A stretch of DNA of 30,589 nucleotides from a virus. The first letter of the stretch is position 1. Each line of letters starts with the position of its first letter. This document shows, one piece after another, positions 1-13,769 of the stretch. The stretch is from the IMG/VR virus record IMGVR_UViG_3300006793_000154, positions 1-30,589 of that record, one strand, 5' to 3'. Below the pieces are notes generated by a model, which was not told the origin of the DNA, searched no databases, and saw only the letters and a list, made by a program, of their open reading frames with translations. A program made the translations under genes and the position numbers.

Positions 1-80
1 ACGGAGAACTTGATCGGCTCGAGCTTGATGAGCCCACCGTCAGTCCACAGGTTCCTCGACACGCGGTTGTATCTCTTCAT
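1..80 (-). CDS. Partial gene leaving the left edge; N-terminus only
   Basis: The first 26 codons are open with no stop and begin MKRYNRVSRNLWTDGG. The ATG is at 80-78 on the minus strand, with a GGAGAG ribosome-binding site at 93-88, seven bases upstream. The pattern of a basic start, then Arg-x-Trp and a Leu-x-Pro, is loosely like the N-termini of phage replication-initiator or helix-turn-helix proteins, but 26 residues are too few to name a family. It is the next gene of the leftward transcription unit, separated from its upstream neighbour by an unusually structured 208-base gap. Confidence 0.6.
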   Translation of the reverse strand, partial: MKRYNRVSRNLWTDGGLIKLEPIKFS

Positions 81-117
81 GGCGCAACTCTCCGATGCCG
101 TGAGACGGCAGGGTGCG

Positions 118-257
118 GCGAGAGACTTGTCTTCTCGCTCTTGGTGGTTCGGGCACTCTCTACCTCCCCCCTTGCCGTTTTCCGGGGATCAACCGGAGAC
201 AAGAGGGGAGGCTCAACCAAGAGCGACCCGAAGGACGTGGATGGACCTTAGTGGTCC
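118..257. other. Highly structured intergenic region with nested inverted repeats
   Basis: The 208 bases between the genes ending at 289 and starting at 80 hold no credible gene but several complementary arms. TCGCTCTTGGT (135-145) pairs perfectly with ACCAAGAGCGA (216-226). Inside it, 163-174 pairs with 200-211 (11 of 12), and inside that TTTCCGG (179-185) pairs with CCGGAGA (193-199, one G-T pair). A competing hairpin GCGAGA (118-123)/TCTCGC (133-138) overlaps the outer arm. A separate GGACC/GGTCC hairpin sits at 243-257. There is no T-tract typical of an intrinsic terminator. Possible roles are termination or processing of leftward mRNA, a leader RNA, or a protein or replication site. Confidence 0.5.
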
Positions 258-276
258 GCTGGGTTCGGGGTCAAGG
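248..276 (-). promoter_or_regulatory. Weak promoter candidate for leftward transcription
   Basis: On the minus strand TTGACC (276-271) is followed after 18 bases by TAAGGT (253-248). The -35 matches the sigma-70 consensus at five of six positions but the -10 is poor. It would drive the gene running off the left edge and would place the hairpins of 118-226 in its leader. A weak call. Confidence 0.2.
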
Positions 277-288
277 GTGTGGGTGAGA

Positions 289-624
289 TCATCTCATCGA
301 CTCCCAGGCTTCGGCCTGCTTCCGATTGCAATAGTGGACCATCCTCCAGTATGGGCCGTGCTCGTCGGTCCACTCATAGAGGCACTTCGACAAGATCCGA
401 TATCGGGGGTCGGACGAATCCTTCTCATGCAGACCATGCTTCTCGATGTACTCCCCGACCTGGGTCATGGAGACAATTTCCTTGTCCACGCAATACCTCT
501 GCATGCGGAAGTCATCCTCCCACTCCCCCACGCATCGAGACTTCATCAGGACTTCGGGGTCATCCCCAGCAGCGAGCGCCACGGGAAAGGAGAGAGCCAG
601 AGCTATCAACAGTCTTTTCATCAT
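289..624 (-). CDS. Small secreted or periplasmic hypothetical protein
   Basis: The 111-residue product begins MMKRLLIALALSFPVALAAG: two Lys/Arg-type residues, a hydrophobic core, and small residues at an Ala-x-Ala-like cleavage site, which is a signal peptide. The mature part has four Cys at roughly even spacing (in CVGEWEDDFRMQRYC and CLYEWTDEHG...YC), so disulfides are plausible after export. The start was chosen at 624 because AGGAGGT lies eight bases upstream and the ATG overlaps the stop of the preceding gene as ATGA; the longer frame to 663 would destroy the signal peptide. The stop lies within the palindrome TGAGAT-C-ATCTCA (284-296). The family is not recognised. Exported phage products can act in envelope modification or exclusion, but nothing here shows that. 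Confidence 0.75.
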   Translation of the reverse strand: MMKRLLIALALSFPVALAAGDDPEVLMKSRCVGEWEDDFRMQRYCVDKEIVSMTQVGEYIEKHGLHEKDSSDPRYRILSKCLYEWTDEHGPYWRMVHYCNRKQAEAWESMR

Positions 625-815
625 CGCTTCGACCTCCTGGTTGATTGTTCTCCATGCTTCCACGCCTCGCGGGCAAGGTCTGGCACCTCATCAGGGAGCG
701 GCTCTCCCCGTGCCCCCATGCCCCATGCATACCGCTCGACCACAAGGCACTCAGGACCGCATGCCGACCAGGGTCCGTAGAGGGTGGAGCGGACGACGCA
801 TGCTCGACAGTTCAT
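621..815 (-). CDS. Small Cys-rich hypothetical protein (64 aa)
   Basis: The product begins MNCRACVVRS and has C3-x2-C6 and C19-x3-C23, a spacing compatible with a small zinc-binding knuckle, followed by a charged C-terminus ending in STRRSKR. The ATG at 815 overlaps the upstream recombinase-like stop as ATGA, and its own stop overlaps the next start at 624 in the same way, so the three genes are probably translationally coupled. A longer frame to 914 would overlap the upstream gene by 100 bases and is rejected. No strong ribosome-binding site is visible, which fits coupling. Function unknown. Confidence 0.6.
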   Translation of the reverse strand: MNCRACVVRSTLYGPWSACGPECLVVERYAWGMGARGEPLPDEVPDLAREAWKHGEQSTRRSKR

Positions 816-1474
816 GGCTTGTCCGAGTGCGAATTGATGAGTCGCCGGACCCCCGTCGCGTACCACTGACCTCCGCTCTTCGGCCTGTACCCCAACTCCT
901 CCAGTCTCCGACATATCTTGTGCAGAGACATCCCCTTCGACCGCAGAGAGATAGCGTGAGCGATCCCCTCCTGCTCATGATCATCGACCATGAGAAAGCC
1001 GTTCTCGAGACGCTTTCCGTAGGGCACTCGGCCCCCCTGGAACACTCGGTCGTTGTCGATGACACGTCGAGCCTTGCTGACCGCTTCGGACACCCTCCGG
1101 TGGGTCTCCATGAGAGCAACCATGCCCGACATGGTCATGCTCACCTCAGCCTCCGGGGCGCCGTCTACGGGCTGAAGCGAGGCTCCAGAGCTTGTGATCA
1201 TCCCAGCGAACACTGACGCCTGCAGGGGGTCGTTTGACACATCCGACAGGGAGGCGAGGAAGACGGTGTCTCCCGCTCCGACTCGAGCCAGCAGGGACCG
1301 CACTGCCTTGCGAGACTCCAGCGGTGTCTCGATGGTCGATGTGTCCCTGATGGACTCGTCGAATGTTTGGTCCCTGTCTCTCCACGCCTCAGAGAGAAGG
1401 TCTGAATCGTACAGACAGTTGCTCTGATGGTGTCTCTCTGCTGCGGTTCCCCGCAGGTATGCGTACCTCGTCAT
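812..1474 (-). CDS. Serine-recombinase-like protein with degenerate catalytic site
   Basis: The 220-residue protein starts MTRYAYLRGTAAER, matching the resolvase/invertase N-terminal strand (usually Y-x-R-V-S-T) with R8 kept but the nucleophilic Ser replaced by T10. The later Asp-Arg-Leu-x-Arg active-site motif appears as SLSDVSND (about 76-81), lacking both arginines. The C-terminal part (about 147-213: GGRVPYGKRL, then DHEQEGIAHAISLRSKGMSLHKICRRLEELGY, then W-x-x-x-x-V-R-R-L) matches the recombinase domain that binds DNA in large serine recombinases, but the long zinc/coiled-coil extension is absent. It is therefore probably a DNA-binding protein without strand exchange, perhaps a regulator. 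The start at 1474 is supported by GGAGGA about ten bases upstream; the frame reaches 1561 but would overlap the neighbour. It forms an ATGA overlap with the next gene. Confidence 0.75.
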   Translation of the reverse strand: MTRYAYLRGTAAERHHQSNCLYDSDLLSEAWRDRDQTFDESIRDTSTIETPLESRKAVRSLLARVGAGDTVFLASLSDVSNDPLQASVFAGMITSSGASLQPVDGAPEAEVSMTMSGMVALMETHRRVSEAVSKARRVIDNDRVFQGGRVPYGKRLENGFLMVDDHEQEGIAHAISLRSKGMSLHKICRRLEELGYRPKSGGQWYATGVRRLINSHSDKP

Positions 1475-1496
1475 CGTCCTCGTCCTCCGTTGTGTG

Positions 1497-1709
1497 TTAT
1501 CGGCCTGTCTCGTCATTGCCAGCCCATGCCATGAGCATTGCTGCGATCCTCTCGTCATCACTCAGCGTCACGTCGTCACCGTCCTCACCGACGGCGTAGC
1601 GGACGGTCCACCGACCCTCGACCTCCATGAGTTCGACCGAGATGTCCTCCCAGCCTGTACCCGGTTTCTCAGACTCTCGCCCAACCGTCACGGTCACTGC
1701 CCGCGTCAT
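1497..1709 (-). CDS. Small acidic hypothetical protein (70 aa)
   Basis: The product begins MTRAVTVTVGRESEKPGTG and is acidic, with alternating hydrophobic strands (AVTVTV; DISVELMEVEGRWTVRYAV) followed by a short helix (SDDERIAAMLMAWAG). This suggests a small beta-beta-beta-alpha fold. The ATG at 1709 overlaps the upstream stop as ATGA, with GGTGAGG just upstream. It lies 22 bases before the recombinase-like gene in the same leftward unit. Not recognised. Confidence 0.65.
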   Translation of the reverse strand: MTRAVTVTVGRESEKPGTGWEDISVELMEVEGRWTVRYAVGEDGDDVTLSDDERIAAMLMAWAGNDETGR

Positions 1710-2056
1710 GCCTCACCCCCCAGGTCCATGCCGAACCCGTTGCTCATTGCCCGAAGAGCCTCGAGCGTCGTCGCACGGAACCTCTCACGGTCCATCGCGT
1801 CGTTGAGACTGTCGATGCCCATCCGCATCCTGTGCCACAGGTGCGAGACTCGCTCATCGTCCTGGTCGCCACCCATCTCGGTCAACTCATCCTCAGCCTC
1901 ATCGAGGCAGGTCAGAAGGCTCATCAGTCTGATTTGGGTGGAGCCCACGGGGGAGTCCATCCCGTAGAGCATGCTCTGCATCCTCGACACCGTCTCCATG
2001 TCCATCGTGCCCTCGCACAGGACCGTCTCCAGAGTCATCACGTCGTCCCTAGTCAT
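1706..2056 (-). CDS. Hypothetical Met/Asp-rich helical protein (116 aa)
   Basis: The product begins MTRDDVMTLETVL, is rich in Met, Asp and Glu, and appears almost wholly alpha-helical (for example MSLLTCLDEAEDELTEMGG and MRMGIDSLNDAMDRERFRATTLEALRAM). The start at 2056 has GGAGGAG about eight bases upstream, a much better signal than the longer frame to 2158. Its start lies inside the last codons of the 51-codon gene at 2049-2204, and its stop overlaps the next start as ATGA. Function not recognised. Confidence 0.7.
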   Translation of the reverse strand: MTRDDVMTLETVLCEGTMDMETVSRMQSMLYGMDSPVGSTQIRLMSLLTCLDEAEDELTEMGGDQDDERVSHLWHRMRMGIDSLNDAMDRERFRATTLEALRAMSNGFGMDLGGEA

Positions 2057-2204
2057 TGTCTCTCCTCCTCGATTTGTGCTTGGTCTTGCGAGACCTCCCC
2101 TTGCGGAGGTCCATCTCTCGGTTGGTGTGCGTCCCTGCGCCCGCCCCGCCACGGGCAATCAATGCCCGCAGCGAGACGAGTAGCTTTCGTTTGGGTTGGC
2201 TCAT
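2049..2204 (-). CDS. Short basic protein (51 aa) in a tight operon slot
   Basis: This short frame starts MSQPKRKLLVSLRALIARGG and ends KTKHKSRRRDND, with about a third of residues Arg, Lys or His and few acidic residues. Its ATG (2204) overlaps the upstream stop (2203-2201) as ATGA, and its TAG (2051-2049) overlaps the next gene's start by eight bases, so it fills an otherwise empty 140-base gap exactly. That fit, more than length, supports it as real. The charge suggests nucleic-acid binding, but no domain is recognised. Confidence 0.6.
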   Translation of the reverse strand: MSQPKRKLLVSLRALIARGGAGAGTHTNREMDLRKGRSRKTKHKSRRRDND

Positions 2205-2821
2205 CTGCTCCACTCCTCGCAGAATCGAATCATGTCGTCGAGGCTCTCGCGCAGCGTGGGGAGCACGTCGCTCTCAAGCGAGACCCGGACAGCCTCCTCG
2301 TAGGTCGGGTATGCCCACCCCTCTCCGATCATCTGGTCGAGGTCATGCTCGACCTCGTTGACAGCCTCGCTGAGTGCCTGGAGGAGGTCGCCCACCTCAT
2401 CTGCCCAGTCCTCGTCCGCGACATCGGGAGACGCCTCAGCGACACTCTCGTCAAGCCGGTTGGCCTCCGACTCGATGACTGCGAAGCCAGCCCACGTCTC
2501 GGAAAGGTCGCACAGGTCAAGCAACTCGACCTGACGACGAAGCGAGAGGGCGCCCGACCTGACGACCGAGACGAGTTCCCCCCTGCCCGCGTCGAGCAAC
2601 CCGTTCTCCCGGTCACTGTCGAGCGACCGCGCCGAGTGGCACGCCTCGCAGAAGAGGTCGCCGGCGTCGGTCTCGACGGTCGCGGTGGCGTCGCAGACGC
2701 GACGGCTATGGTAGCGCCCCTCGTGCCCGTCGCACGTCGGCGGGTCGTCGTCGGGGGTCATCGAGTCCCAGCGGTGCTGGGCTCGACTGAAGGCTCTCTG
2801 CTGTCTTCGGCTCATGGTCAT
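2201..2821 (-). CDS. Hypothetical protein with N-terminal Cys/His cluster
   Basis: The 206-residue product begins MTMSRRQQRAFSRAQ. C30, H33, C43, then C58-x2-C61-H62 form a probable zinc-ribbon-like site (CDGHEGRYHSRRVC...FCEACH). The rest (about 90-206) is acidic and helical. The start at 2821 was chosen because AGGAG lies five bases upstream. The frame can be extended to a TTG at 2881 that touches the methyltransferase stop, but that would add a Thr/Pro-rich stretch with no start signal. It follows the methyltransferase gene after 56 bases. The CxxC...CxxCH arrangement resembles small host-type zinc proteins of phage accessory regions. Function unknown. Confidence 0.7.
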   Translation of the reverse strand: MTMSRRQQRAFSRAQHRWDSMTPDDDPPTCDGHEGRYHSRRVCDATATVETDAGDLFCEACHSARSLDSDRENGLLDAGRGELVSVVRSGALSLRRQVELLDLCDLSETWAGFAVIESEANRLDESVAEASPDVADEDWADEVGDLLQALSEAVNEVEHDLDQMIGEGWAYPTYEEAVRVSLESDVLPTLRESLDDMIRFCEEWSR

Positions 2822-2877
2822 GGTGTCTCCTGGTTGTGTCGCTCGAGGAGCGACGGTAGGGGTTGGTTGTCGGTGTG

Positions 2878-4389
2878 TCAATCGCCCGTGTCAGCCTCAA
2901 GCACTGCACGCGTCAGGACGCGAGCAAGCGTCGGAGGAACTGCGTTTCCGACCTGCCGATATTGCGCGGTTTTCGTTCCTTTAAACGGGTAGCCCTCAGG
3001 AAAGTCCTGGAGAATCGCGCACTCCTCGACGGTCAGCCGTCTGCGTCCGGTCGAGAGCCAAAGAGCGTCTGAGGCTCTGCATGGCCCACCTTGAGCAGTC
3101 CAGCCGGTCGATTCCTTTCCGTTCGTGCCCTTCGCCTCCGTCGCACTGACAGCCGGCGACGGCATGTCTAGCAAACCGGGATGGCTGGCTTTCCTCCACT
3201 CGCCGCCAAAGCGCGAAGCAAGCATCGGTCGAGTGCTACCGCCCGCGCCCCCGCTAATCGACACGCTCGGCTCATCGACGCTGGTGTGCTCGTCGCTGGT
3301 GCCGCCGCCTGCGCCATCCCGCCCGCGCTGCATGACCATGCTCAGGTACTGGTTGCCCTTCCCCCCCACGGCGAAGATGGGCTCGTCGGTCGATTGCGGG
3401 CGTTCCTGAGTCGGGTTGGCCTCGGTGTTCCGACTGGCCTCAAGCGTCCCATGCCCGGTGAGCCAGTCCCACCCGTAGAGCCCGCCCAAAGCTTTTCCGC
3501 CCGCGACAGGTTGAATCCCTGGGTGGTCTGGGCTCTGCGGCTCCCCTGTGCGTGACGAGCGGCCGCTGAAGTTTGTTGCTGGAGAGATTGCGGCGAGCCC
3601 CAACGACTGACGCACCGTGCACCAGGGCTTGAGCCCAAAGCGAGGGGGAGCACCGAAGAGGCCCTGCTGACGATGCTCTGCGAGCCACCGCGTTTCCTGG
3701 GTGGATGGCTTGCCCGTCTTGCCTGCGCCGACGCTGCTCCAGTACTCCCCTGTCACCCACTTGCTCACGGCGAGGGCTTCGCCGCTATGGGTCGGCCTGG
3801 GCCACTCGATGGCGTGCGGACCCGCCGCGATGAACACGCGACGACGACGCTGCGGCACCCCAAAGTCTGCCGCGTCGAGGATGCGCCACTCAGCCCACGC
3901 AAAACGCTCTTTGAGCTGAGGCATGATAACCCCGTCCAGATAGCATCGCGGGCACGCCTCCGGGTCTGCCTGCTCCCGCCCGGTCCTCGTCGGGCAGTCC
4001 CCGACGTGCATGGTCAAGCCCCTCACGTTCTCGCACAGGAGCCAGCGCGGGCGAACCTTGTCGAGCACGTCAATCGTCCAGGGCCAGCCGTTGCGGTCAC
4101 TCTTCGCGCCCGCACGCTTGCCCGCTGTGGAAAAGTCCTGGCACGGGAACGAGGACCAGAGCAGGTCGATGCCCTCGACCCCCTCGTAAAGCTTGAGGTC
4201 TCGCACGTCTCCGGTCACGCACGGGAAACCCGCCGCGCGAGATGTTGCCGCCGCGCTTTCGTCCCACTCGACCGAGAGAGCGTGCTCGATGCCAGCGTCA
4301 GCGAGGCCAACGTCTGCGCCTCCTGCGCCTGCGAAAAGGGTGAGGCACCTCATGCGCTGGGTGATGTCGTCGATTGTGGAAAAGTTCAT
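2878..4389 (-). CDS. C5-cytosine-specific DNA methyltransferase
   Basis: The enzyme transfers a methyl group from S-adenosylmethionine to C5 of cytosine in a specific DNA site. All main motifs are present in order over 503 residues: motif [15 protein letters not shown] (16-29, cofactor), motif [12 protein letters not shown] (81-90, nucleophile C83), motif VI ENVRGL (120-125), motif [15 protein letters not shown] (180-190), motif [20 protein letters not shown] (about 452-469) and motif [10 protein letters not shown] (478-486). It therefore looks active. Between VIII and IX lies a long (about 250-residue) target-recognition region with Gly/Ser-rich segments, and C131/C146/C149 could form a small zinc site. 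No restriction endonuclease lies next to it, so it is an orphan enzyme, plausibly protecting phage DNA from host restriction. The ATG at 4389 follows a GGGAG site in the recurrent leader. Confidence 0.95.
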
Positions 4390-4408
4390 GTCTGGTCTCC
4401 CTGGTTGG
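4387..4408 (-). promoter_or_regulatory. Start-associated leader element, copy A (methyltransferase gene)
   Basis: On the minus strand CCAACCA-GGGAG-ACCAGAC runs directly into ATG. The 22 bases differ at one position from those at 5344-5365. It holds the ribosome-binding site of the methyltransferase gene, and its upstream CCAACC block recurs before most genes up to 8298. Confidence 0.6.
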
Positions 4409-4414
4409 TTCTTC

Positions 4415-4831
4415 TCAGACGACGAAGCAGGCGCGCCCGTCTACGTCGATGACTCCAGCCCCACCGTCAGTCTCTGCAGCCTTGCGTGAGGAGTGGAGTT
4501 CGGATGGGGTCGCGGGCCGGAGGACATCCCCGGTCCTGTAGTCGGTGAGTTCTCCGTACTGGCCTGAGGTCCAGGTGGGCTCTCCACAGGTCGCAGCCCA
4601 CTCCATCCACAGGGTCTCCCGCTCGGCGTCGGTCTCCGGTGCGTCGATGCGAGCCGACTCCGCTCGGATGGTTGGCCCGCTCGGACCACGGAGCGTGACC
4701 CCCGACTCTGAGGCGTCGTCGAGTATGAGGGTGCGGGGTGGGTCGAGCCTCTCCCCGTCGAGAGAGTGGACGTGGACCAGTCCACCCCTCAGGTCTCGGA
4801 GGCTCTCAAGGTTGCTGTCGATGCTGATCAT
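4415..4831 (-). CDS. Hypothetical protein with conserved-looking C-terminal motif
   Basis: The 138-residue product begins [17 protein letters not shown]. The N-terminal half looks beta-rich; the C-terminal part (about 98-138) reads [38 protein letters not shown], a pattern (R-P-A-T, then Ser..Ala..D-G-G-A-G-x-I-x-V-D-G-R-x-C-x-V) that I associate from memory with small uncharacterised proteins of phages and mobile elements. The start at 4831 is preceded by AAGGAG seven bases upstream and by GACC directly before the ATG. It sits 25 bases upstream of the methyltransferase gene, so the two are probably cotranscribed. No function is known to me. Confidence 0.7.
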
Positions 4832-4870
4832 GGTCTATCTCCTTCGAGGCTTCGTGCCCCTACGACCTCA

Positions 4871-4896
4871 ACCCCGACCGGGAGCCGGTACGGGGT
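4871..4896. other. Strong 11-bp hairpin in intergenic gap
   Basis: ACCCCG-ACCGG, loop GAG, CCGGT-A-CGGGGT forms eleven pairs with one bulged A. It lies in the 87-base gap between the genes starting at 5182 and 4831. No T-tract follows on either strand, so it is not a textbook intrinsic terminator. It could stabilise or punctuate the leftward transcript. Confidence 0.5.
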
Positions 4897-4918
4897 GGAG
4901 TGGGGTGGGGGTGGGGGC

Positions 4919-5182
4919 TCAGTCGAGCCAGAGAGTTCGGGCGAAGTGACCGAACTCAGCGTTCGCCTCGATGTTGGTGGCGTCGGCGTCGTGCTCGTCG
5001 GACCACACTCCGATCGCCCACTCGGTGAAGTCTGCGATCTCGCAGTCCTCGACGCCGTCGTAGAGGTAGCTCGTGCCGTCGTAGGAGACGAGCACTTGAT
5101 CGTCGGTGGGGATGGGCATCGGTCGTCCCTGTCCCTGTCGGTGGACGGCGATGCAGCGGGATGCGAAGGATGGGGCGCTCAT
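4919..5182 (-). CDS. Hypothetical acidic protein (87 aa)
   Basis: The product begins MSAPSFASRCIAVHRQ. Its middle, VLVSYDGTSYLYDGVEDCEIADFTEWAIGVWSDEHDADATNIEAN, contains YDGTSYLYDG and several Trp/Tyr residues, suggesting a compact alpha/beta domain. The start at 5182 is preceded by GGAGAG and by GACC directly before ATG; a longer Arg-rich frame to 5311 has no start signal and would cover the small membrane-protein gene. The ATG overlaps that upstream gene's stop as ATGA. Not recognised. Confidence 0.65.
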   Translation of the reverse strand: MSAPSFASRCIAVHRQGQGRPMPIPTDDQVLVSYDGTSYLYDGVEDCEIADFTEWAIGVWSDEHDADATNIEANAEFGHFARTLWLD

Positions 5183-5346
5183 GGTCTCTCTCCGTTGTCG
5201 TCTTGGTCTTGTGGGGGTGAGTTCGCCGCGAAGCCAGCGAGGATGCAGAGCAGCCCAGGTATCGCGACGTAGAGGTAGAGGATGGGCTCTGCGTCGTCGG
5301 GTGGGACGCACATCAGCAGGATGAGCCCAATGATGATCAACAGCAT
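5179..5346 (-). CDS. Small two-segment membrane protein (55 aa)
   Basis: The product begins MLLIIIGLILLMCVPPDDAE, a hydrophobic segment (2-14). It continues with a second segment (about 22-41, ILYLYVAIPGLLCILAGFAA) and a hydrophilic tail (NSPPQDQDDNGERP). A two-pass hairpin in the cytoplasmic membrane is likely. The start is supported by AAGGAG seven bases upstream in a copy of the recurrent leader (5344-5365), and the stop overlaps the next start as ATGA. Small holins can look like this, but no endolysin or spanin gene lies nearby and the position is in the accessory arm, so I only call it a membrane protein; superinfection exclusion is another possibility. Confidence 0.7.
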   Translation of the reverse strand: MLLIIIGLILLMCVPPDDAEPILYLYVAIPGLLCILAGFAANSPPQDQDDNGERP

Positions 5347-5567
5347 GTCTGGTCTCCTTGGTTGGGGGTGGGCAGTTCGTCGGCGGGGACGAGGATGGTC
5401 ATCCCATCCTCGTCAGTGTGGGTGCCGTCGCTGTGTTCGGTGAGCACGGGCTGCTCGCCAAAACACGCCTCGCACATGTCGAGGAACGCCTCCAGCGAGG
5501 CGTACTCAGCGTCCTGGGGATCGTATGCGTCATGGACGCAGAGGAGGGGGGTGGGTGTCTCAGTCAT
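5337..5567 (-). CDS. Small acidic hypothetical protein (76 aa)
   Basis: The product begins MTETPTPLLCVHDAYDPQDAEYASLEAFLDMCEACFGEQPVL, has a C-x2-C within DMCEACFG and ends DQTCC. It is strongly acidic. The start at 5567 overlaps the upstream stop by eight bases, and GGAG precedes it in a leader ending GACCATG; the longer frame to 5621 is less likely. Its 3' end overlaps the membrane-protein start by ten bases. The Cys pairs could bind metal. Not recognised. Confidence 0.65.
   Translation of the reverse strand: MTETPTPLLCVHDAYDPQDAEYASLEAFLDMCEACFGEQPVLTEHSDGTHTDEDGMTILVPADELPTPNQGDQTCC
5344..5365 (-). promoter_or_regulatory. Start-associated leader element, copy B (membrane-protein gene)
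   Basis: CCAACCA-AGGAG-ACCAGAC directly precedes the ATG at 5346 on the minus strand. It differs at one of 22 bases from the element at 4387-4408, though the coding sequences that follow are unrelated. This copy lies inside the 3' end of the upstream gene. Confidence 0.6.
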
Positions 5568-5856
5568 GGTCACAGTCTCCGGTTCGGATGTAGGCGCGGG
5601 CGTCGTCGCGAGACTTGCCATCGAGGAAGGCGGGGGTGCCGGTTCCGTTGATGTCGTCGCGCTTCAGCCACCCGGCGAACGGGCATAGGCGGTGGACGAA
5701 GAATCGGTCGAACGACTGCGGGTAGGTTCCGTCTCGACCGAAGAAACCCCGACCGATGGGGCAGCCGACGCCTCGCGGGTGCTCTGGGTAGTCGATGACG
5801 AACCCGGCAGCGCGGGCCTCGTCTAGGGTCAATTCGTTGGCGGGGTCGTGGGTCAT
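5560..5856 (-). CDS. Hypothetical protein (98 aa)
   Basis: The product begins MTHDPANELTLDEARAAGFVIDYPEHPRGVGCPIGRGFFG and contains several aromatic residues (SFDRFFVHRLCPFAGWLKRDD), a GTGTPAFLDGK stretch and a His/Asp-rich end (GDCDHD). The N-terminal LTLDEARAAGFVID resembles a short helical module. The start has GGAG five bases upstream and a CCAACCAA block before it. It follows the gene ending at 5882 after 25 bases and overlaps the next gene by eight bases. Not recognised. Confidence 0.65.
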   Translation of the reverse strand: MTHDPANELTLDEARAAGFVIDYPEHPRGVGCPIGRGFFGRDGTYPQSFDRFFVHRLCPFAGWLKRDDINGTGTPAFLDGKSRDDARAYIRTGDCDHD

Positions 5857-5881
5857 GGTCGCTCCGGTGTTGGTTGGTTGG

Positions 5882-6133
5882 TTATCGGTTGAGGGCGTGA
5901 AAGGTTCTGAGATCCCCGACCGGGGAGTGGATCCAGCGCATCATCGGTCCGATGGTCTCGGTGTGTCCGCAGGACGCGCAGCGCGCGACGACGGACCGAC
6001 CTTGGATGGCGTACCCCCAGATGCCCTCACCGTCTTTCACCGGCTCCCCATATTTGGGGGTGCTGCAGGGTTGCGATGGGCACGATGGCCCTATGTCGGT
6101 GCTTGCGAACGCCGGGTGCGGTGTGTGTCTCAT
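5882..6133 (-). CDS. Hypothetical protein with possible zinc ribbon (83 aa)
   Basis: The product begins MRHTPHPAFASTDIGPSCPSQPC. Two Cys pairs, C18-x4-C23 and CASCGHTETIG (C52-x2-C55), are arranged like a small zinc ribbon, and the second resembles the knuckle found in transcription-factor-like zinc proteins. The C-terminus ends in an amphipathic stretch MMRWIHSPVGDLRTFHALNR. GGAG lies five bases upstream of the start within the recurrent leader. It sits between two short genes of the leftward unit. Role unknown; nucleic-acid binding is an inference from the Cys pattern only. Confidence 0.65.
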   Translation of the reverse strand: MRHTPHPAFASTDIGPSCPSQPCSTPKYGEPVKDGEGIWGYAIQGRSVVARCASCGHTETIGPMMRWIHSPVGDLRTFHALNR

Positions 6134-6163
6134 GTCAGCTCCGTGGTTGGTTGGTTGGTGGGG

Positions 6164-6370
6164 TTATCGAGCGCTGGCAAGTTCGATAGCTTCGACGGCT
6201 TGGTCAATCAGGGCCTGAGCTGTAGCCAACGGATCTTTCATCGTAAGTTCCTGCGCGGCTGTCACGGTGTCTGGGTCGAATCCCGCGAGTCGCACCCGGT
6301 ACACCCACAGGTCAGTGGAGAGCGCTCGAAAATCTGCTTCAAGGTCGGTGTGGTCGTGTCGTTCGGTCAT
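6164..6370 (-). CDS. Small helical hypothetical protein (68 aa), MTERHD start
   Basis: The product begins MTERHDHTDLEADFRALS and seems mainly helical with a regular Ala/Leu pattern at the end (DPLATAQALIDQAVEAIELASAR). The first six codons and the bases before them are identical to those of the gene starting at 6976 (a 23-base exact repeat at 6353-6375 and 6958-6980), but the proteins diverge after that. GGAG lies five bases upstream and GACC precedes the ATG. Not recognised. Confidence 0.65.
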   Translation of the reverse strand: MTERHDHTDLEADFRALSTDLWVYRVRLAGFDPDTVTAAQELTMKDPLATAQALIDQAVEAIELASAR

Positions 6371-6375
6371 GGTCG
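6353..6375 (-). repeat. 23-bp direct repeat over a gene start, copy 1
   Basis: This segment, covering GACC-ATG and the first six codons (MTERHD) of the gene starting at 6370, is identical to 6958-6980 over the start of the next upstream gene. It indicates duplication or recombination of a start cassette rather than of a whole gene. Confidence 0.8.
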
Positions 6376-6415
6376 CTCCAAGGGTTGGTGGGGTGGTTGG
6401 TTGCTAGGTGGCGCA

Positions 6416-6976
6416 TCAGCGCCCGCAGCACTCGCACGGTGGGAAGGGGGTCGTTCGGATGACCATATTGTCGCCGTAGGTGGCGAGGTCAAAACGGGCG
6501 GGATAGGTGGACCACTCGTCGAGGATGTCGAGCAGAGAGCACTCGTCGTCCCCACCCCATCGGATGGGCTCCCAGAGATTTGAACTGTCGAACTCTGCGA
6601 GGAGTTCGATGATGTTCCCGACCCAGTCGTTCTCTGGGTCGCCGTCCCATCGAGCCCACAGGGCCGGCAGGGTGCGCTGCCAGCGGCGCATGGCAGCGAG
6701 ATAAAGGTGGGCATCCTCGACCCCGTCCCCCGTCCACTCGACAGGGATGGTCTCCGTGTAGGTGCCGTGCCCACCCTCGCCCTCTCTGAGGATGTTGACG
6801 GCGATGCCTTCGGCCCCCTCCGATTCCGGGGTGGCGTAGAAGCCGGTCTCCCGACCGTCTAGGGTCCAGAGGAGAAAGCCGGGGTGATCCCATGTGGCTG
6901 ACATGCCGGGGAGGGTGGCGCCGTCGATGGCGGCGAGGAAGTCGGGGTTCTCTGTCGGGTCGTGTCGTTCGGTCAT
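6416..6976 (-). CDS. Hypothetical protein (186 aa), MTERHD start
   Basis: The product begins MTERHDPTENPDFLAAIDGATLPGM, is acidic and aromatic-rich (several Trp: ATWDHPGFLLWTLDG, RRWQRTLPALWARWDG, SSNLWEPIRWGG) and ends in a Cys-rich tag PPCECCGR that could bind metal. The fold looks mixed alpha/beta. It shares only its first six residues with the gene starting at 6370. The start at 6976 is preceded by AAGGA, GACC and the long TTGGTGGG repeat (as C/A-rich sequence on the coding strand). I do not recognise a family. Confidence 0.7.
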   Translation of the reverse strand: MTERHDPTENPDFLAAIDGATLPGMSATWDHPGFLLWTLDGRETGFYATPESEGAEGIAVNILREGEGGHGTYTETIPVEWTGDGVEDAHLYLAAMRRWQRTLPALWARWDGDPENDWVGNIIELLAEFDSSNLWEPIRWGGDDECSLLDILDEWSTYPARFDLATYGDNMVIRTTPFPPCECCGR

Positions 6977-6980
6977 GGTC
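6958..6980 (-). repeat. 23-bp direct repeat over a gene start, copy 2
   Basis: Identical to 6353-6375; covers GACC-ATG and codons 1-6 of the 186-residue protein gene. Confidence 0.8.
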
Positions 6981-6989
6981 TGGGTGTCC

Positions 6990-7029
6990 TTGGTTGGTTG
7001 GTGGGTTGGTGGGTTGGTGGGTTGGTGGG
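6990..7029. repeat. Short tandem repeat (TTGG)2(TTGGTGGG)4
   Basis: On the plus strand two TTGG units (6990-6997) are followed by four perfect TTGGTGGG units (6998-7005, 7006-7013, 7014-7021, 7022-7029). The array fills the gap between the stop at 7030 and the leader of the gene starting at 6976. It is an expanded form of the CCAACC block seen before neighbouring genes. The G-runs could form a two-tier quadruplex on the plus (template) strand. Confidence 0.9.
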
Positions 7030-7386
7030 TCAGACGGACAGACCAGCCCGAAGGCTAGACATCTCACGCTCCCAGTCGGCGTAGGGGTGCAATGTGTTGC
7101 GGACCACGTAGCTGTTGAGGTATCGGCGTGTCACGGCTTCGGAGGCGTCAGCCCACTCACCGGGAGTCGGTGAGCGCTCGGTGACGTACTCACGCCCGTC
7201 GATGTCGGTGACGATCTCAAGGCCTGCAATTTCATCCTTGGAGAGGGTGGCGAACTCCGCGCCGGTGATTCGAGTGCGGTAGGTGTCAAACTCTGCAGCC
7301 CGGTAGGAGTCGAGTGCGGAGCGGTATCGGGCTCTCGGGTCTTCGGGAATGTGTCCGTCGCCCCAGCGGGGCAGAAAGTCGGTCAT
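7030..7386 (-). CDS. Hypothetical protein (118 aa)
   Basis: The product begins MTDFLPRWGDGHIPEDPRARYRSALDSYRAAEFDTYRTRITGAEF and is charged and mainly helical, with a short predicted strand pair around AGLEIVTDIDGREYVTE. The ATG at 7386 has GGAG nine bases upstream and GACC just before it; a GTG two codons earlier is too close to that site. The stop abuts the TTGGTGGG array. It lies second in the leftward unit, 43 bases downstream of the gp88-like gene. Not recognised. Confidence 0.65.
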   Translation of the reverse strand: MTDFLPRWGDGHIPEDPRARYRSALDSYRAAEFDTYRTRITGAEFATLSKDEIAGLEIVTDIDGREYVTERSPTPGEWADASEAVTRRYLNSYVVRNTLHPYADWEREMSSLRAGLSV

Positions 7387-7428
7387 GGTCACGGTCTCCG
7401 TTGGTGGGTGGGGTAGGTGTGGGGTGGG

Positions 7429-8298
7429 CTACCAGGCGAGCCGCTTGACGAACCCGCTCCGGTCCAGTAGAGCCCGACCCTTGGCATAGAGGACACTAAG
7501 GGTTCCCCGGTCGTCGGGCCGATAGTCGTGGGCGTCCCCATCGGTCGTGGGCATTCCCATCCATGACCCCGACTCGATAACGGTCTGTGCGGTCTCTTTC
7601 GCGCCCGACCGGGAGTCGTCGGCCCCTGCGACGACGACTGCCGCGCCTTGACCGGCTCTCACGTAATCGCGCGCATCATCGACGGATGAGGGGCGCTCGC
7701 TAACCGAGTAGGTGAGGGTGTAGTTGGGTACGCTGAGGTCTCGCGCGCCGCGAGGCGCCTTGGTGTAGTCGTACCAGACGACCCCAGGGGTGTAGTCCAT
7801 GAGCACACCGCGCCACCGTTCCCAGTCGAAGTCCGATGTGCCGTTGGGTCGGATAGCGGCGCGCTTCCCCATCCGCTCCGCGCGCTTATGCAGGGCGGTA
7901 GCTTCCTTCTGAAGCCCTGCGACGGCTTGCAAGGGGAACAAGTGAAGAAGAAGCGTCTTCCGGAGTCGTCCCCGACGAGATGAGGGCATTGACATCCGAC
8001 CCGTACCCTCACCTAGACATGACTCAATGCAGCCATCCGTCGCGAACGGGCACATGTTGGCTACGCCCGATGCCTTGAACGGTGACAGGTAGATGACGGA
8101 GGTAAGGACGCCGATGCCCTCTCCACGCTCAACCTTGGTCGAGGTTCCCAAGAAGCCGGTACCGCGCCCGACTGTGAGCAGCCTGTAGGCTTTCCCCCAG
8201 TCCTCAGCGCGCAAAGCTGCAGCTAGTCCGGGGATAGTGTCGTCTCCGCTGAGGTAGCGTCGGACGTATCGAGGATTCGGGGTGTCAAGAGTGATCAT
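7429..8298 (-). CDS. gp88/DUF7227-like phage protein of unknown function
   Basis: The 289-residue product matches, from memory, a phage family (DUF7227, related to mycobacteriophage gene 88 protein). Typical features in order are: YLSPFKASGVANMCPFATDGCIESC (70-94, with C83, C90, C94), an Arg-rich helix after it (SSRRGRLRKTLLL), IRPNGTSDFDWERW (149-162), VVWYDYTKAP (173-182), NYTLTYSVSERPSS (192-205) and a C-terminal AKGRALLDRSGFVKRLAW. The conserved Cys suggest metal binding. The catalytic role is not established. The start at 8298 follows AAAGGA and GACC; the frame reaches 8406 but that part lacks a start signal. It is the first gene of the leftward arm, so it is probably expressed first from a promoter in the 8299-8986 region. 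Confidence 0.7.
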   Translation of the reverse strand: MITLDTPNPRYVRRYLSGDDTIPGLAAALRAEDWGKAYRLLTVGRGTGFLGTSTKVERGEGIGVLTSVIYLSPFKASGVANMCPFATDGCIESCLGEGTGRMSMPSSRRGRLRKTLLLHLFPLQAVAGLQKEATALHKRAERMGKRAAIRPNGTSDFDWERWRGVLMDYTPGVVWYDYTKAPRGARDLSVPNYTLTYSVSERPSSVDDARDYVRAGQGAAVVVAGADDSRSGAKETAQTVIESGSWMGMPTTDGDAHDYRPDDRGTLSVLYAKGRALLDRSGFVKRLAW

Positions 8299-8400
8299 GG
8301 TCTGGGGTCCTTTGGTTGGTTGATTGATTTGATTGAGTAGCGAGGCGCCAACATACATATGACACAAGGGAACAGGGGGACACACTGACACGATAGTAAG

Positions 8401-8580
8401 GTGCACACGACCACTACCCTGGACAAGCGCTTGAAATCGCTAGGGAAAGCGAGATGTAAAATCTTCGGGGATGGCTGTGTCTCTGTATGGACCCGAGAAG
8501 GGGCAGGTGGGGAGGGGGCTCGCCCATTAGGTATCGAGTACCCACCCAGCGCAGATTCCCTAGTGTTTCCGCCAGGCTAA
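8401..8580 (+). CDS. Possible small protein (59 aa), weak support
   Basis: A GTG-started frame reads MHTTTTLDKRLKSLGKARCK (GTG as Met) and continues through a Trp/Gly-rich middle (VSVWTREGAGGEGARPLGIEY) to a TAA at 8578-8580. The charge pattern looks like other short phage proteins. Against it, there is no ribosome-binding site, it faces away from the adjacent leftward genes, and it covers the palindrome at 8424-8433. It could equally be chance. Confidence 0.25.
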   Translation: MHTTTTLDKRLKSLGKARCKIFGDGCVSVWTREGAGGEGARPLGIEYPPSADSLVFPPG

Positions 8581-8881
8581 CCTTCGTCGCTAGACTTAGG
8601 GCGAGAGGCTCGAGGTTTAGTTGAGCCTATGGGGGTTAAGTGCCTGGAAACGTTGAGGTTTCTGGCTGTGCTCAAGGTTGACCCTACCCCCCTCCCCCCA
8701 TTAGGTACCCCTCTTATTATTATGTCCCCTTCATCTATGCGAGAAGGCTTGTGTTCATCTCGACTGCGACCAGGGGTGGCTTGTCGTTAGGGGGTATAGG
8801 CCGGGGTGTTTTTCGAGAGGGTTTGGGTTTTCTGAGGGAGAGCAATGCGGAGCGTTGCTTGAGAGAAGAAGATAAGGAGGT

Positions 8882-8909
8882 ATGACGCGGGGGCAGTTTT
8901 TCCTATAAA
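8882..8909 (+). promoter_or_regulatory. Candidate promoter for the RHH regulator
   Basis: ATGACG (8882-8887, four of six -35 positions), a 16-base spacer and TATAAA (8904-8909, five of six -10 positions) would start transcription near 8916. The palindromes of 8927-8973 would then lie in the early transcribed region. An alternative -10, TATAGT (8971-8976), would give a nearly leaderless mRNA starting at about 8983 but has only a T-run in place of a -35. Confidence 0.35.
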
Positions 8910-8926
8910 ACCCGGCGATTTTGTTC

Positions 8927-8973
8927 CGAGATAGCCGGCTATTCGCTTTTTTTTTGAGCCGAATAGCCGGTAT
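8927..8973. promoter_or_regulatory. Paired palindromes and T9 tract: operator and/or terminator
   Basis: ATAGCCGGCTAT (8931-8942) is a perfect 12-bp palindrome. A related ATAGCCGGTAT lies at 8963-8973. CCGGCTATTCG (8935-8945) and CGAATAGCCGG (8960-8970) are perfect 11-bp inverted copies around a loop containing T9 (8947-8955). The first palindrome with flanking CGA/TCG also makes a short hairpin directly before the T9, like an intrinsic terminator. The site ends 14 bases before the start of a ribbon-helix-helix-like gene, and such proteins bind paired short palindromes, so an autoregulatory operator is likely. Confidence 0.55.
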
Positions 8974-8986
8974 AGTCTTCGTCGTT

Positions 8987-9301
8987 ATGGGTAGTCGTGT
9001 TGTTCGTCTCGAGTTGCGTTTGAGTGTTGAGGAGCGGGAGGTGGTTGTGGAGGCTGCTTCTTGTCGGGGTATGCCTGTTGCTCGTTATGCTCGGGAGTGC
9101 GTTGTTGCTTCTGCTCGGGGTCGTGTTGTTCCTTCGTCCTGGCTTGCGGATGCTCTTGACGGTCTTGAGGAGGTGCAGGCTCGGTTGCGGGGTGTTCGTG
9201 GGTTTATGCCGGACGGCTGGGAGGATGAGTTGTCGGGGCTTGTGGATGACATCATCCATGTAGGGAGTACTGCCTTGGACGGTGACGAGGGGGATGTTTG
9301 A
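8987..9301 (+). CDS. Ribbon-helix-helix-like DNA-binding regulator
   Basis: The 104-residue product begins MGSRVVRLELRLSVEEREVVVEAASCRGMPVARYARECVV. This is the usual arrangement of CopG/Arc/MobC-type proteins: a beta strand (RVVRLELRLS), a helix (EEREVVVEAASCRG), a turn (MPVARYA) and a second helix. The mobilisation-protein relatives share the R-x-S-x-x-E-x-x-x-L/V and S-x-x-x-Y-x-R-x-x pattern. The C-terminus is acidic. It should bind DNA as a dimer, probably at the palindromes just upstream. The ATG at 8987 has no ribosome-binding site and may be leaderless; an in-frame TTG at 8921 would translate through the palindromes and is less likely. Codons are T-rich at the start (TGTTGTTCG...), unlike the left arm. 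The next gene begins within its stop as TGATG. Confidence 0.7.
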   Translation: MGSRVVRLELRLSVEEREVVVEAASCRGMPVARYARECVVASARGRVVPSSWLADALDGLEEVQARLRGVRGFMPDGWEDELSGLVDDIIHVGSTALDGDEGDV

Positions 9302-9684
9302 TGTGGTGTCTTCGTATGATTCGGCAGATGAACGGCCCCTGGCCTGATTCGCCTGAGGGGATCGTTCAGTCTCTTCGGGAGAAGAACCCTGACGCCTTGC
9401 TTCTCGAGCCTCGCGAGTTTTACGACGCTGCGCTTCTCGGCATTACAGACTTCCCTCACGACAACTGGCCTCGAAAGCTGGGTGTGTGGGTTGCTGTTTA
9501 CGATGCGGACTTGTGCATCCAGGCGACCCTCGAGATGGGGGACTGCTCAGAGGAAGAGGCTATTGACTGGTTCTACACGAATACGAGCGGGGGATGGCTC
9601 GGTAGCGGCACACCTACGTTTCGGTGGACGGACCTCGATACCCCAAAACCGACACTACCCACCAGAGGGGGGTCTGGTGGGTAG
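9301..9684 (+). CDS. Hypothetical protein coupled to the RHH gene (127 aa)
   Basis: The product begins MWCLRMIRQMNGPWPDSPEG and has a mixed fold with LLLEPREFYDAALLGITDF, VWVAVYDADLCIQATLEMGD, CSEEEAIDWFYTNTSGGWLG and a Pro/Gly-rich end. The ATG overlaps the upstream stop (TGATG) and GAGGGGG lies about seven bases before, so it is translated with the regulator. The pairing of a small DNA-binding protein with an alpha/beta partner recalls toxin-antitoxin layout, but no toxin motif is seen and the partner is not a known toxin family to me. The last ten codons form one arm and loop of a perfect hairpin. Confidence 0.7.
   Translation: MWCLRMIRQMNGPWPDSPEGIVQSLREKNPDALLLEPREFYDAALLGITDFPHDNWPRKLGVWVAVYDADLCIQATLEMGDCSEEEAIDWFYTNTSGGWLGSGTPTFRWTDLDTPKPTLPTRGGSGG
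9655..9684. terminator. Perfect 12-bp hairpin at the end of the rightward unit
   Basis: CTACCCACCAGA (9655-9666), loop GGGGGG, TCTGGTGGGTAG (9673-9684) is a perfect inverted repeat that includes the stop codon. It lies where the rightward regulator unit meets the leftward gene at 9864-10187, so it is well placed to act for both directions. Neither strand has a long T-tract (only TTTT some bases after the leftward copy), so termination would be inefficient or factor-dependent. Confidence 0.5.
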
Positions 9685-13206: not shown

Positions 13207-13767
13207 CTAACTAGAAAGCTGAAACTCTCCAGGGGCAACCTTCGTCACGCCATCAAGCATCTTGACGATGGTGTAGACCCGGTTGTACGGAGCGTTAATC
13301 TCCTTTGCCAGGTTCTTCACCTTGAAGGAGACACCGGGCTTGATTGCTTTCTGCACGGCAGACTTCACGTCAATCGGACCTGTCGGTCGCTTCACGTCTT
13401 TCGCCTTGATGTGGACAGCCTGAGGGTTGAAAGGCTTGACCGTCTTGTCGCGGTCAACTTCACCGACGACGAAGTTGCTGCCCATGACTTCGCGGACCTG
13501 CTGCTCTTTCTCTCCCTTGCTTGTCCACGACCTGCCTACAAGCTCTTTCGGGGCTGTGCGGGGGTTCCACTCTCCGTAGTCCCTGTGGACTCGAGGTGTA
13601 GACATTGCCGTGTAGTGCCTCTTCGGGGCTTTCGTATCGCACATGGGGCACCTCACCTCGTAGAAGGGAGGGTCCATAGCCAATACCTTCTCGTATCGAG
13701 ATAGGGACATCGGCTCTTCAAACACACGCTTGCATGTGTACTTCTGGCATTTGAACTCGTAAAGCAC
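13207..13767 (-). CDS. Zinc-ribbon protein with possible C-terminal helix-turn-helix
   Basis: The 186-residue product begins, from a GTG, MLYEFKCQKYTCKRVFEEPMS; C7, C12, C40 and C43 (VRCPMCDTK) make an FmdB-like zinc ribbon. A Pro/Lys-rich linker follows, and the end (about 140-180, VQKAIKPGVSFKVKNLAKEINAPYNRVYTIVKML) looks like a helix-turn-helix. GGAGGAA upstream of the GTG lies in the portal gene's last codons, and the GTG is two bases after the portal stop, so it is cotranscribed with portal. Its stop abuts the terminase stop. The fold suggests nucleic-acid binding; it might regulate late genes or help packaging, but no experimental family is known to me. Confidence 0.75.
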   Translation of the reverse strand: MLYEFKCQKYTCKRVFEEPMSLSRYEKVLAMDPPFYEVRCPMCDTKAPKRHYTAMSTPRVHRDYGEWNPRTAPKELVGRSWTSKGEKEQQVREVMGSNFVVGEVDRDKTVKPFNPQAVHIKAKDVKRPTGPIDVKSAVQKAIKPGVSFKVKNLAKEINAPYNRVYTIVKMLDGVTKVAPGEFQLSS

Positions 13768-13769
13768 GT

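What the first reader, a model, noticed from the sequence alone, without database searches (positions are those of the whole stretch)
4387..8325. A recurring start-associated leader before most left-arm genes
At least seven leftward starts (4389, 5346, 5856, 6133, 6370, 6976, 8298) carry variants of one upstream block: CCAACC(AA) repeats, then GGAG or AGGA, then the ATG; 7386 has a shorter form (CCACCCACCAACGGAG). GACC directly precedes the ATG at 4831, 5182, 5567, 5856, 6370, 6976, 7386 and 8298. Copies at 4387-4408 and 5344-5365 agree at 21 of 22 bases before unrelated proteins, so the leader rather than the gene is conserved. Established comparison: cluster K mycobacteriophages have start-associated sequences, but the sequence here differs. 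It may coordinate translation of the arm, bind a regulator or RNA, or promote recombination that shuffles genes between leaders.
Basis: partly seen in the sequence, partly recalled or inferred. Interest (0 to 1): 0.65.

Follow-up and report, generated by a model that had tools for sequence, protein, structure and literature searches.

The report
Repeated CCAA leader before phage genes
Most genes in one arm of this phage fragment are preceded by a stretch of only A and C, built from CCAA repeats and joined to the ribosome-binding site; unrelated phages have evolved the same device, most likely to keep the ribosome landing site free of RNA structure.

Summary
On the minus strand of 4387-8330, CCAACC occurs 16 times (2.0 in shuffles) and AACCAACC 8 times (0.08). 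Eight of eleven leftward starts carry the block, and every quoted coordinate and the 21/22 match check out. It is not cluster K SAS: that consensus is at chance level here. The block is a spacer of only A and C, filling the gap between a stop codon and the Shine-Dalgarno (SD) site.

It is not peculiar to this phage. A viral-contig scan found about ten mutually unrelated records with multi-copy CCAA leaders. They lie on the coding strand, at 8-58% of called starts against about 0.4% inside genes. Other phages use (CA)n in the same place. What the two dialects share is A/C-only, unpaired RNA. Predicted unpaired probability is 0.62 against 0.42 before the SD, and 0.58 against 0.46 at the SD and start.

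Best explanation: a cis-acting ribosome landing pad (standby site or enhancer), homogenised within each genome. Start blocks are also copied between unrelated genes here (23/23 nt through ATG and codons 2-6). A dialect-specific RNA or protein reader is not excluded. Function is inferred; no expression data exist. No paper in the searchable library describes it.

The parts
8299..8322 (-). CCAA leader + SD of the GP88-family gene (AACCAACCAAAGGACCCCAGACC)
7387..7428 (-). short-form A/C-only leader + CGGAG before gene 7030-7386; two A/C-only runs, 7400-7414 and 7416-7428
6977..7030 (-). longest leader: 41-nt A/C-only run with an 8-nt period (CCACCAAC) x4 then CCAACCAA, AGGA
6371..6403 (-). CCAA leader + GGAG before gene 6164-6370
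6134..6165 (-). CCAA leader + GGAG before gene 5882-6133; begins at the stop codon of the upstream gene
5857..5883 (-). CCAA leader + GGAG before gene 5560-5856; begins at the stop codon of the upstream gene
5347..5372 (-). leader CCCACCCCCAACCAAGGAG before gene 5179-5346
4390..4412 (-). leader AAGAACCAACCAGGGAG before the C5-cytosine methyltransferase gene 2878-4389
2822..2868 (-). weaker, interrupted form (AACCAACCCC ...
6352..6374 (-). 23-nt start block GACCATGACCGAACGACACGACC, copy 1
6958..6980 (-). 23-nt start block GACCATGACCGAACGACACGACC, copy 2, before an otherwise unrelated protein
7429..8298 (-). first gene of the arm, GP88 family (PF17338; phrog_1617)
2878..4389 (-). C5-cytosine DNA methyltransferase carrying a leader

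Best explanation
Each block is the 5' half of a translation-initiation region: an A/C-only spacer, built by tandem CCAA (sometimes CCACC) repeats, running from the upstream stop codon to the SD. A and C cannot pair with each other, so the RNA just before the SD stays single-stranded and gives the 30S subunit a landing (standby or enhancer) site, while the SD and AUG are kept open in an otherwise GC-rich, structured polycistronic mRNA. Repeat slippage and copying of whole start blocks between genes spread one dialect through one gene module. Shown here: position, strand bias, repeat unit, predicted single-strandedness, recurrence in unrelated phages, a second (CA)n dialect, and copied start blocks. 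Inferred: ribosome recruitment, raised translation, and slippage or recombination as the way it spreads.
For: (1) Far above chance and tied to starts on the coding strand. (2) Starts with the leader have unpaired probability 0.66 before the SD and 0.59 at SD/start in this window, against 0.46 and 0.48 for its other genes; over nine records 0.62 vs 0.42 (p=6e-17) and 0.58 vs 0.46 (p=5e-10). (3) In 120 viral loci picked by one (CCAA)3 site, the other CCAACCAA clusters lie 144:33 on the seed strand, with SD plus start at 80 against 7. (4) In about ten records sharing almost no proteins, 8-58% of called starts carry it, against about 0.4% of in-gene windows and about 0% antisense. (5) A composition-matched (CA)6 scan shows the same anatomy: 62 vs 5 extra SD-sites, several loci with 4-7 copies. 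CCAA repeats contain no ACA and (CA)n no CCAA, so what they share is A/C-only RNA. (6) It fills spacers: 4 of 160 starts with overlap or <15-nt gap have it, against 59 of 155 with a same-strand gap of 15 nt or more. (7) Precedent: C/A-rich elements just upstream of the SD are proven enhancers in enterobacteria, without strict spacing (PMC3879156).
Against: No expression data exist. Single-strandedness follows almost automatically from A/C-only composition, so it does not by itself prove selection for it. Genes without the leader in the same phages show no general A/C enrichment (0.48-0.57); a pure accessibility model would predict a gradient rather than all-or-none. Within one genome the unit is fixed (52 AACC against 1 AAAC), which may mean unit-specific recognition, although those records were chosen by CCAA. 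Twelve named phage records have none, so phages do well without it. Tested ACA enhancers depend on the ACA triplet, which CCAA lacks.
Confidence: 0.66

Rival explanations
1. The repeats are binding sites for a dialect-specific RNA or protein (phage- or host-encoded) that switches translation of the module on or off together, as GcvB sRNA silences C/A-rich enhancers.
For: The unit is fixed within a genome and present or absent per gene, with non-leader genes not A/C-rich. C/A-rich pre-SD elements are GcvB targets in enterobacteria. Leaders sit in non-structural modules, often on replication, recombination or methylation genes.
Against: Copy number (1 to 7 CCAACC), interruptions (CCACC, CCCAACC) and SD distance (mostly 0-12 nt) vary freely. 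Two different dialects have the same anatomy. No G/U-rich RNA gene was identified: Rfam gave nothing in the window, and AACCAACC is absent from the plus strand, so GGTTGGTT is absent from minus-strand RNA.
Confidence: 0.17
2. Recombination or duplication boundary: the block is a by-product, or a substrate, of start-region copying that lets new genes be captured behind a working start.
For: 6370 and 6976 share 23/23 nt through codon 7; 4389/5346 21/22; 5567/7386 18/19; 5856/6370 15/15; the null maximum score is 13 in 200 simulations. Similar copies occur in other records, e.g. 28/28 nt in G007. The 6370 and 6976 proteins align only over their first 16 residues.
Against: Recombination alone predicts no strand bias and no tie to the SD. 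Repeat arrays of 8-40 nt are short for homologous recombination. No related pair of genomes was found with a gene swapped at the leader.
Confidence: 0.1
3. Neutral microsatellite: CCAA repeats expand in intergenic spacers by slippage and have no function.
For: Blocks sit in spacers, and repeat number varies between orthologues (89% identical pair L240/L267).
Against: Neutral slippage predicts both strands equally. Observed: 8:0 AACCAACC in the arm, 80:7 SD-sites in CCAA loci, and 4:1 for the complementary TTGG control. The flanking sequence turns over while the leader is kept (L042/L061).
Confidence: 0.05
4. CCAACC pairs with GGUUGG next to the anti-SD at the 16S rRNA 3' end, extending mRNA-rRNA pairing.
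For: The 16S tail reads GGUUGGAUCACCUCC in many bacteria (own knowledge).
Against: Antiparallel pairing would need CCAACC downstream of GGAG, whereas it is always upstream. The (CA)n dialect cannot pair there.
Confidence: 0.02

Closest known systems
Start-Associated Sequences (SAS/ESAS) of cluster K mycobacteriophages (PMC3203893, PMC12699233)
   Same: Many near-identical copies in one orientation just upstream of starts of unrelated, mostly non-structural genes; include an SD core; function undetermined
   Different: SAS is a fixed 13-mer GGGATAGGAGCCC, half with 17-bp inverted repeats (ESAS). Here the constant part is a variable-length A/C-only repeat tract. SAS consensus is at chance level in the window, and Anaya (cluster K) has no CCAA leader
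C/A-rich (ACA) translational enhancers of enterobacterial GcvB targets such as yifK, dppA, gltI (PMC3879156)
   Same: C/A-rich tract directly upstream of the SD, no strict spacing, raises initiation; 30S or S1 anchoring proposed
   Different: Chromosomal transporter genes; depends on ACA triplets, which CCAA repeats lack; not a tandem repeat shared by a gene module
Ribosome standby sites / unstructured 5' tails (PMC7708055 and works it cites)
   Same: Single-stranded RNA upstream of the RBS captures the 30S subunit
   Different: tisB standby lies about 100 nt upstream and also needs a 5' structure; here the tract abuts the SD, between genes of what is probably one operon

Membership tests
Cluster K SAS/ESAS | Consensus GGGATAGGAGCCC with 2 or fewer mismatches upstream of starts | tested here: not met
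   none with 2 or fewer; five with 3 mismatches, 8.3 expected by chance
Cluster K SAS/ESAS | Multi-copy, mostly one orientation, immediately upstream of starts of different gene families | tested here: met
Cluster K SAS/ESAS | Imperfect 17-bp inverted repeat next to the element (ESAS) | tested here: not met
   perfect hairpins 5' of leaders at 19/101, against 42/309 before other genes; only short gene-specific stems, no shared inverted repeat
ACA (GcvB-target type) translational enhancer | ACA trinucleotides within a C/A-rich tract upstream of the SD | tested here: not met
   CCAACCAA contains no ACA (sequence); the (CA)n dialect in other phages does
ACA (GcvB-target type) translational enhancer | Mutation of the tract lowers translation | not testable with these tools
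   needs reporter assay
Ribosome standby site | Single-stranded region upstream of the RBS | tested here: met
   predicted only:
Ribosome standby site | 30S/S1 binds the region before the RBS opens | not testable with these tools
   needs toeprint or binding assay

The most novel reading that the evidence does not exclude
Unrelated phages each mark a whole set of non-structural genes with one private A/C repeat dialect, (CCAA)n or (CA)n, that is read by a phage-encoded or phage-altered translation factor. This would form a translation-level regulon that new genes join by copying the start block.
Probability: 0.15. Interest if true: 0.82.

Novelty: new variant of a known kind. Interest (0 to 1): 0.52.

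Why it matters
If right, many uncultivated phages share a convergent design rule for translating closely packed genes: an A/C-only repeat tract fused to the SD, in genome-specific dialects. That gives a ready marker for finding start codons and co-expressed modules in metagenomic phages, a natural source of compact translation enhancers, and a test of whether accessibility alone or a specific reader drives it. The start blocks copied through the ATG suggest a route by which new phage genes acquire expression.

Tried and rejected
Relatives of the arm: GP88 protein, methyltransferase (one 33% relative), six small proteins concatenated, DNA against phages and plasmids: no close relative of the arm. 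Hairpin immediately 5' of the leader looked recurrent by eye, but 19/101 against 42/309 for other genes is not a clear excess. 16S pairing: wrong order of elements. Phase-variable tetranucleotide repeat: the repeats lie outside the reading frames. Rho loading: C-rich and G-poor, but short, and the (CA)n dialect is poor in CC/UC steps; not pursued. Promoters and terminators in 1-9400: at chance level. Rfam and tRNA scans: nothing. Orthologue test without seed bias: too few pairs (3 keep, 16 differ, mostly at low identity).
Full report
WHAT THE WINDOW IS. The window is a 30,589-base virus record, a fragment. It encodes a terminase large subunit, an SU10/P22-like portal and a major head protein, so it is a tailed, podovirus-like phage. 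A 40.6-kb record, G001, is 91-99% identical over shared parts but stops exactly at window 2372 and 8748. The arm with the leaders is therefore missing from the only close relative; whether by assembly or in reality cannot be told. The arm has higher GC (about 0.64, against 0.55 for the rest).

OBSERVATION. Eight of eleven leftward starts between 4389 and 8298 carry the block; the exceptions are 4831, 5182 and 5567. Against 1000 dinucleotide shuffles, CCAACC is 16 vs 2.0, AACCAACC 8 vs 0.08, and the longest A/C-only run is 41 nt against a shuffle maximum of 29. AACCAACC is absent from the plus strand. The rightward genes of the same window show no A/C-only run of 12 or more upstream (0 of 17; left arm 8 of 15).

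ANATOMY. The block is an A/C-only spacer that runs from the upstream stop codon (e.g. GATAA|CCAACCAACC at 5883) to GGAG or AGGA, then 4-10 nt, often ending GACC, then ATG. Predicted unpaired probability at -45..-16 is 0.63 for the eleven left-arm starts, against 0.41 for right-arm starts and 0.42 for random left-arm positions. Blocks are also near-copies of each other across the start codon: 6370/6976 23 of 23 nt from -4 into codon 7; 4389/5346 21 of 22; 5567/7386 18 of 19; 5856/6370 15 of 15. The top scores for random in-frame sites reach at most 13 in 200 simulations, and the right-arm best is 7. The 6370 and 6976 proteins match only over residues 1-16.

IT IS NOT UNIQUE. The strand-complement control TTGG gave 68 in the complete collection. 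Counting only sites other than the one that selected each locus, CCAACCAA clusters lie 144 on the seed strand to 33 on the opposite, with SD plus start at 80 and 7; the TTGG control gives 4 and 1. Of the TTGG seeds 45% open an ORF of 40 codons or more, against 88% of the CCAA seeds. In whole records, a simple home-made gene caller finds the leader at 34% of starts in G007, 58% in G008, 16% in G009, 26% in G010, 32% in G011, 19% in G021 and 17% in G027, against about 0.4% of in-gene windows and about 0% antisense. These records share almost no proteins with each other or with the window, so the trait has arisen or spread many times. Leader-bearing genes there include integrase, annealing protein, exonuclease, primosomal protein, primase, helicase and methyltransferase, with one minor tail protein.

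BACKGROUND RATES. The composite AACCAACC-SD-ATG occurs 5 times in this 30.6-kb window. It occurs twice in 50 viral records of about 2.05 Mb picked by the TTGG control, never in twelve named phage records of 0.78 Mb, and about once per Mb in nine bacterial genomes (45 matches, against 8 for the reversed pattern; these genomes were themselves chosen because each had one strict match). Most CCAA-seeded records have only one site, so the multi-copy form is uncommon.

A SECOND DIALECT. A composition-matched control, (CA)6, was meant as a negative control. It instead showed the same anatomy: 62 extra SD-sites on the seed strand and 5 on the other, with several loci carrying 4-7 (CA)n leaders, e.g. 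L373, L284, L317, L306. Two homologous proteins (27% identity) have a CCAA leader in one phage (L269) and a (CA)n leader in another (L317). CCAA and CA repeats share A/C-only composition, not a common motif.

MECHANISM. Over nine records, leader starts are predicted more open before the SD (0.62 vs 0.42) and at the SD/start itself (0.58 vs 0.46) than other starts of the same phages. Leaders occupy spacers: 4 of 160 starts that overlap or nearly abut the upstream gene, but 59 of 155 with a same-strand gap of 15 nt or more. Together with the strand bias this points to a role in the RNA at initiation. C/A-rich tracts just upstream of the SD are experimentally proven enhancers that tolerate changes of spacing (PMC3879156), and single-stranded RNA upstream of the RBS can act as a standby site for the 30S subunit (PMC7708055). 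I therefore take the block as a landing pad, probability about two thirds. The chief doubt is that within a genome the unit is fixed and genes lacking it are not A/C-rich, which leaves room for a specific reader.

CONSERVATION. For this arm no orthologues could be found. Elsewhere, close orthologues usually keep the leader while flanking sequence or repeat number changes (at 75% identity or more, 9 pairs keep and 3 do not), but many of those pairs were found through the leader itself. Leaving such pairs out, 3 keep it and 16 differ, mostly at low identity. The leader thus turns over faster than the genes.

KNOWN OR NEW. It works like, but is not a member of, cluster K SAS (sequence tested and absent) or the ACA enhancers (no ACA). 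No paper in the open-access library shows this sequence as a phage feature; that library lacks most subscription journals. I rate it a new variant of a known kind, multi-copy start-associated translation elements, with the convergent repeat dialects as the new part.

LIMITS.

Noticed in passing
L373, L284, L317, L320, L306, L290 (viral contigs): Multi-copy (CA)n leaders directly before SD and start, the same anatomy as the CCAA leaders but another repeat unit; found in what was meant as a negative control.
   Followed up: partly
window 8935-8970: Perfect 11-bp inverted repeat CCGGCTATTCG/CGAATAGCCGG with a run of T between the arms, in the divergent region between the leftward arm and the rightward gene near 8988; operator or terminator candidate.
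   Followed up: no
window 8523-8533 and 8697-8707: Direct repeat CCCATTAGGTA in the non-coding 8300-8985 region upstream of the left arm.
   Followed up: no
window 7002-7030, plus strand: The template strand of the longest leader reads as four GGG tracts separated by TTGGT, a canonical G-quadruplex pattern.
   Followed up: no
window 13207-15743: The portal gene and a small neighbour lie on the minus strand between plus-strand terminase and major head protein genes, an unusual inversion.
   Followed up: no
L262, L259, L252 (records G007, G011, G009): Some leaders are immediately preceded by short perfect hairpins (e.g. GGGGCC-GCAA-GGCCCC); not clearly enriched overall.
   Followed up: yes
window 801-812 vs L132 1562-3088: The close relative G001 carries about 1.5 kb here that the window lacks.
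   Followed up: no
window 1-8300: The leftward arm has GC about 0.64 against 0.55 in the rest, suggesting a different origin of the module.
   Followed up: no
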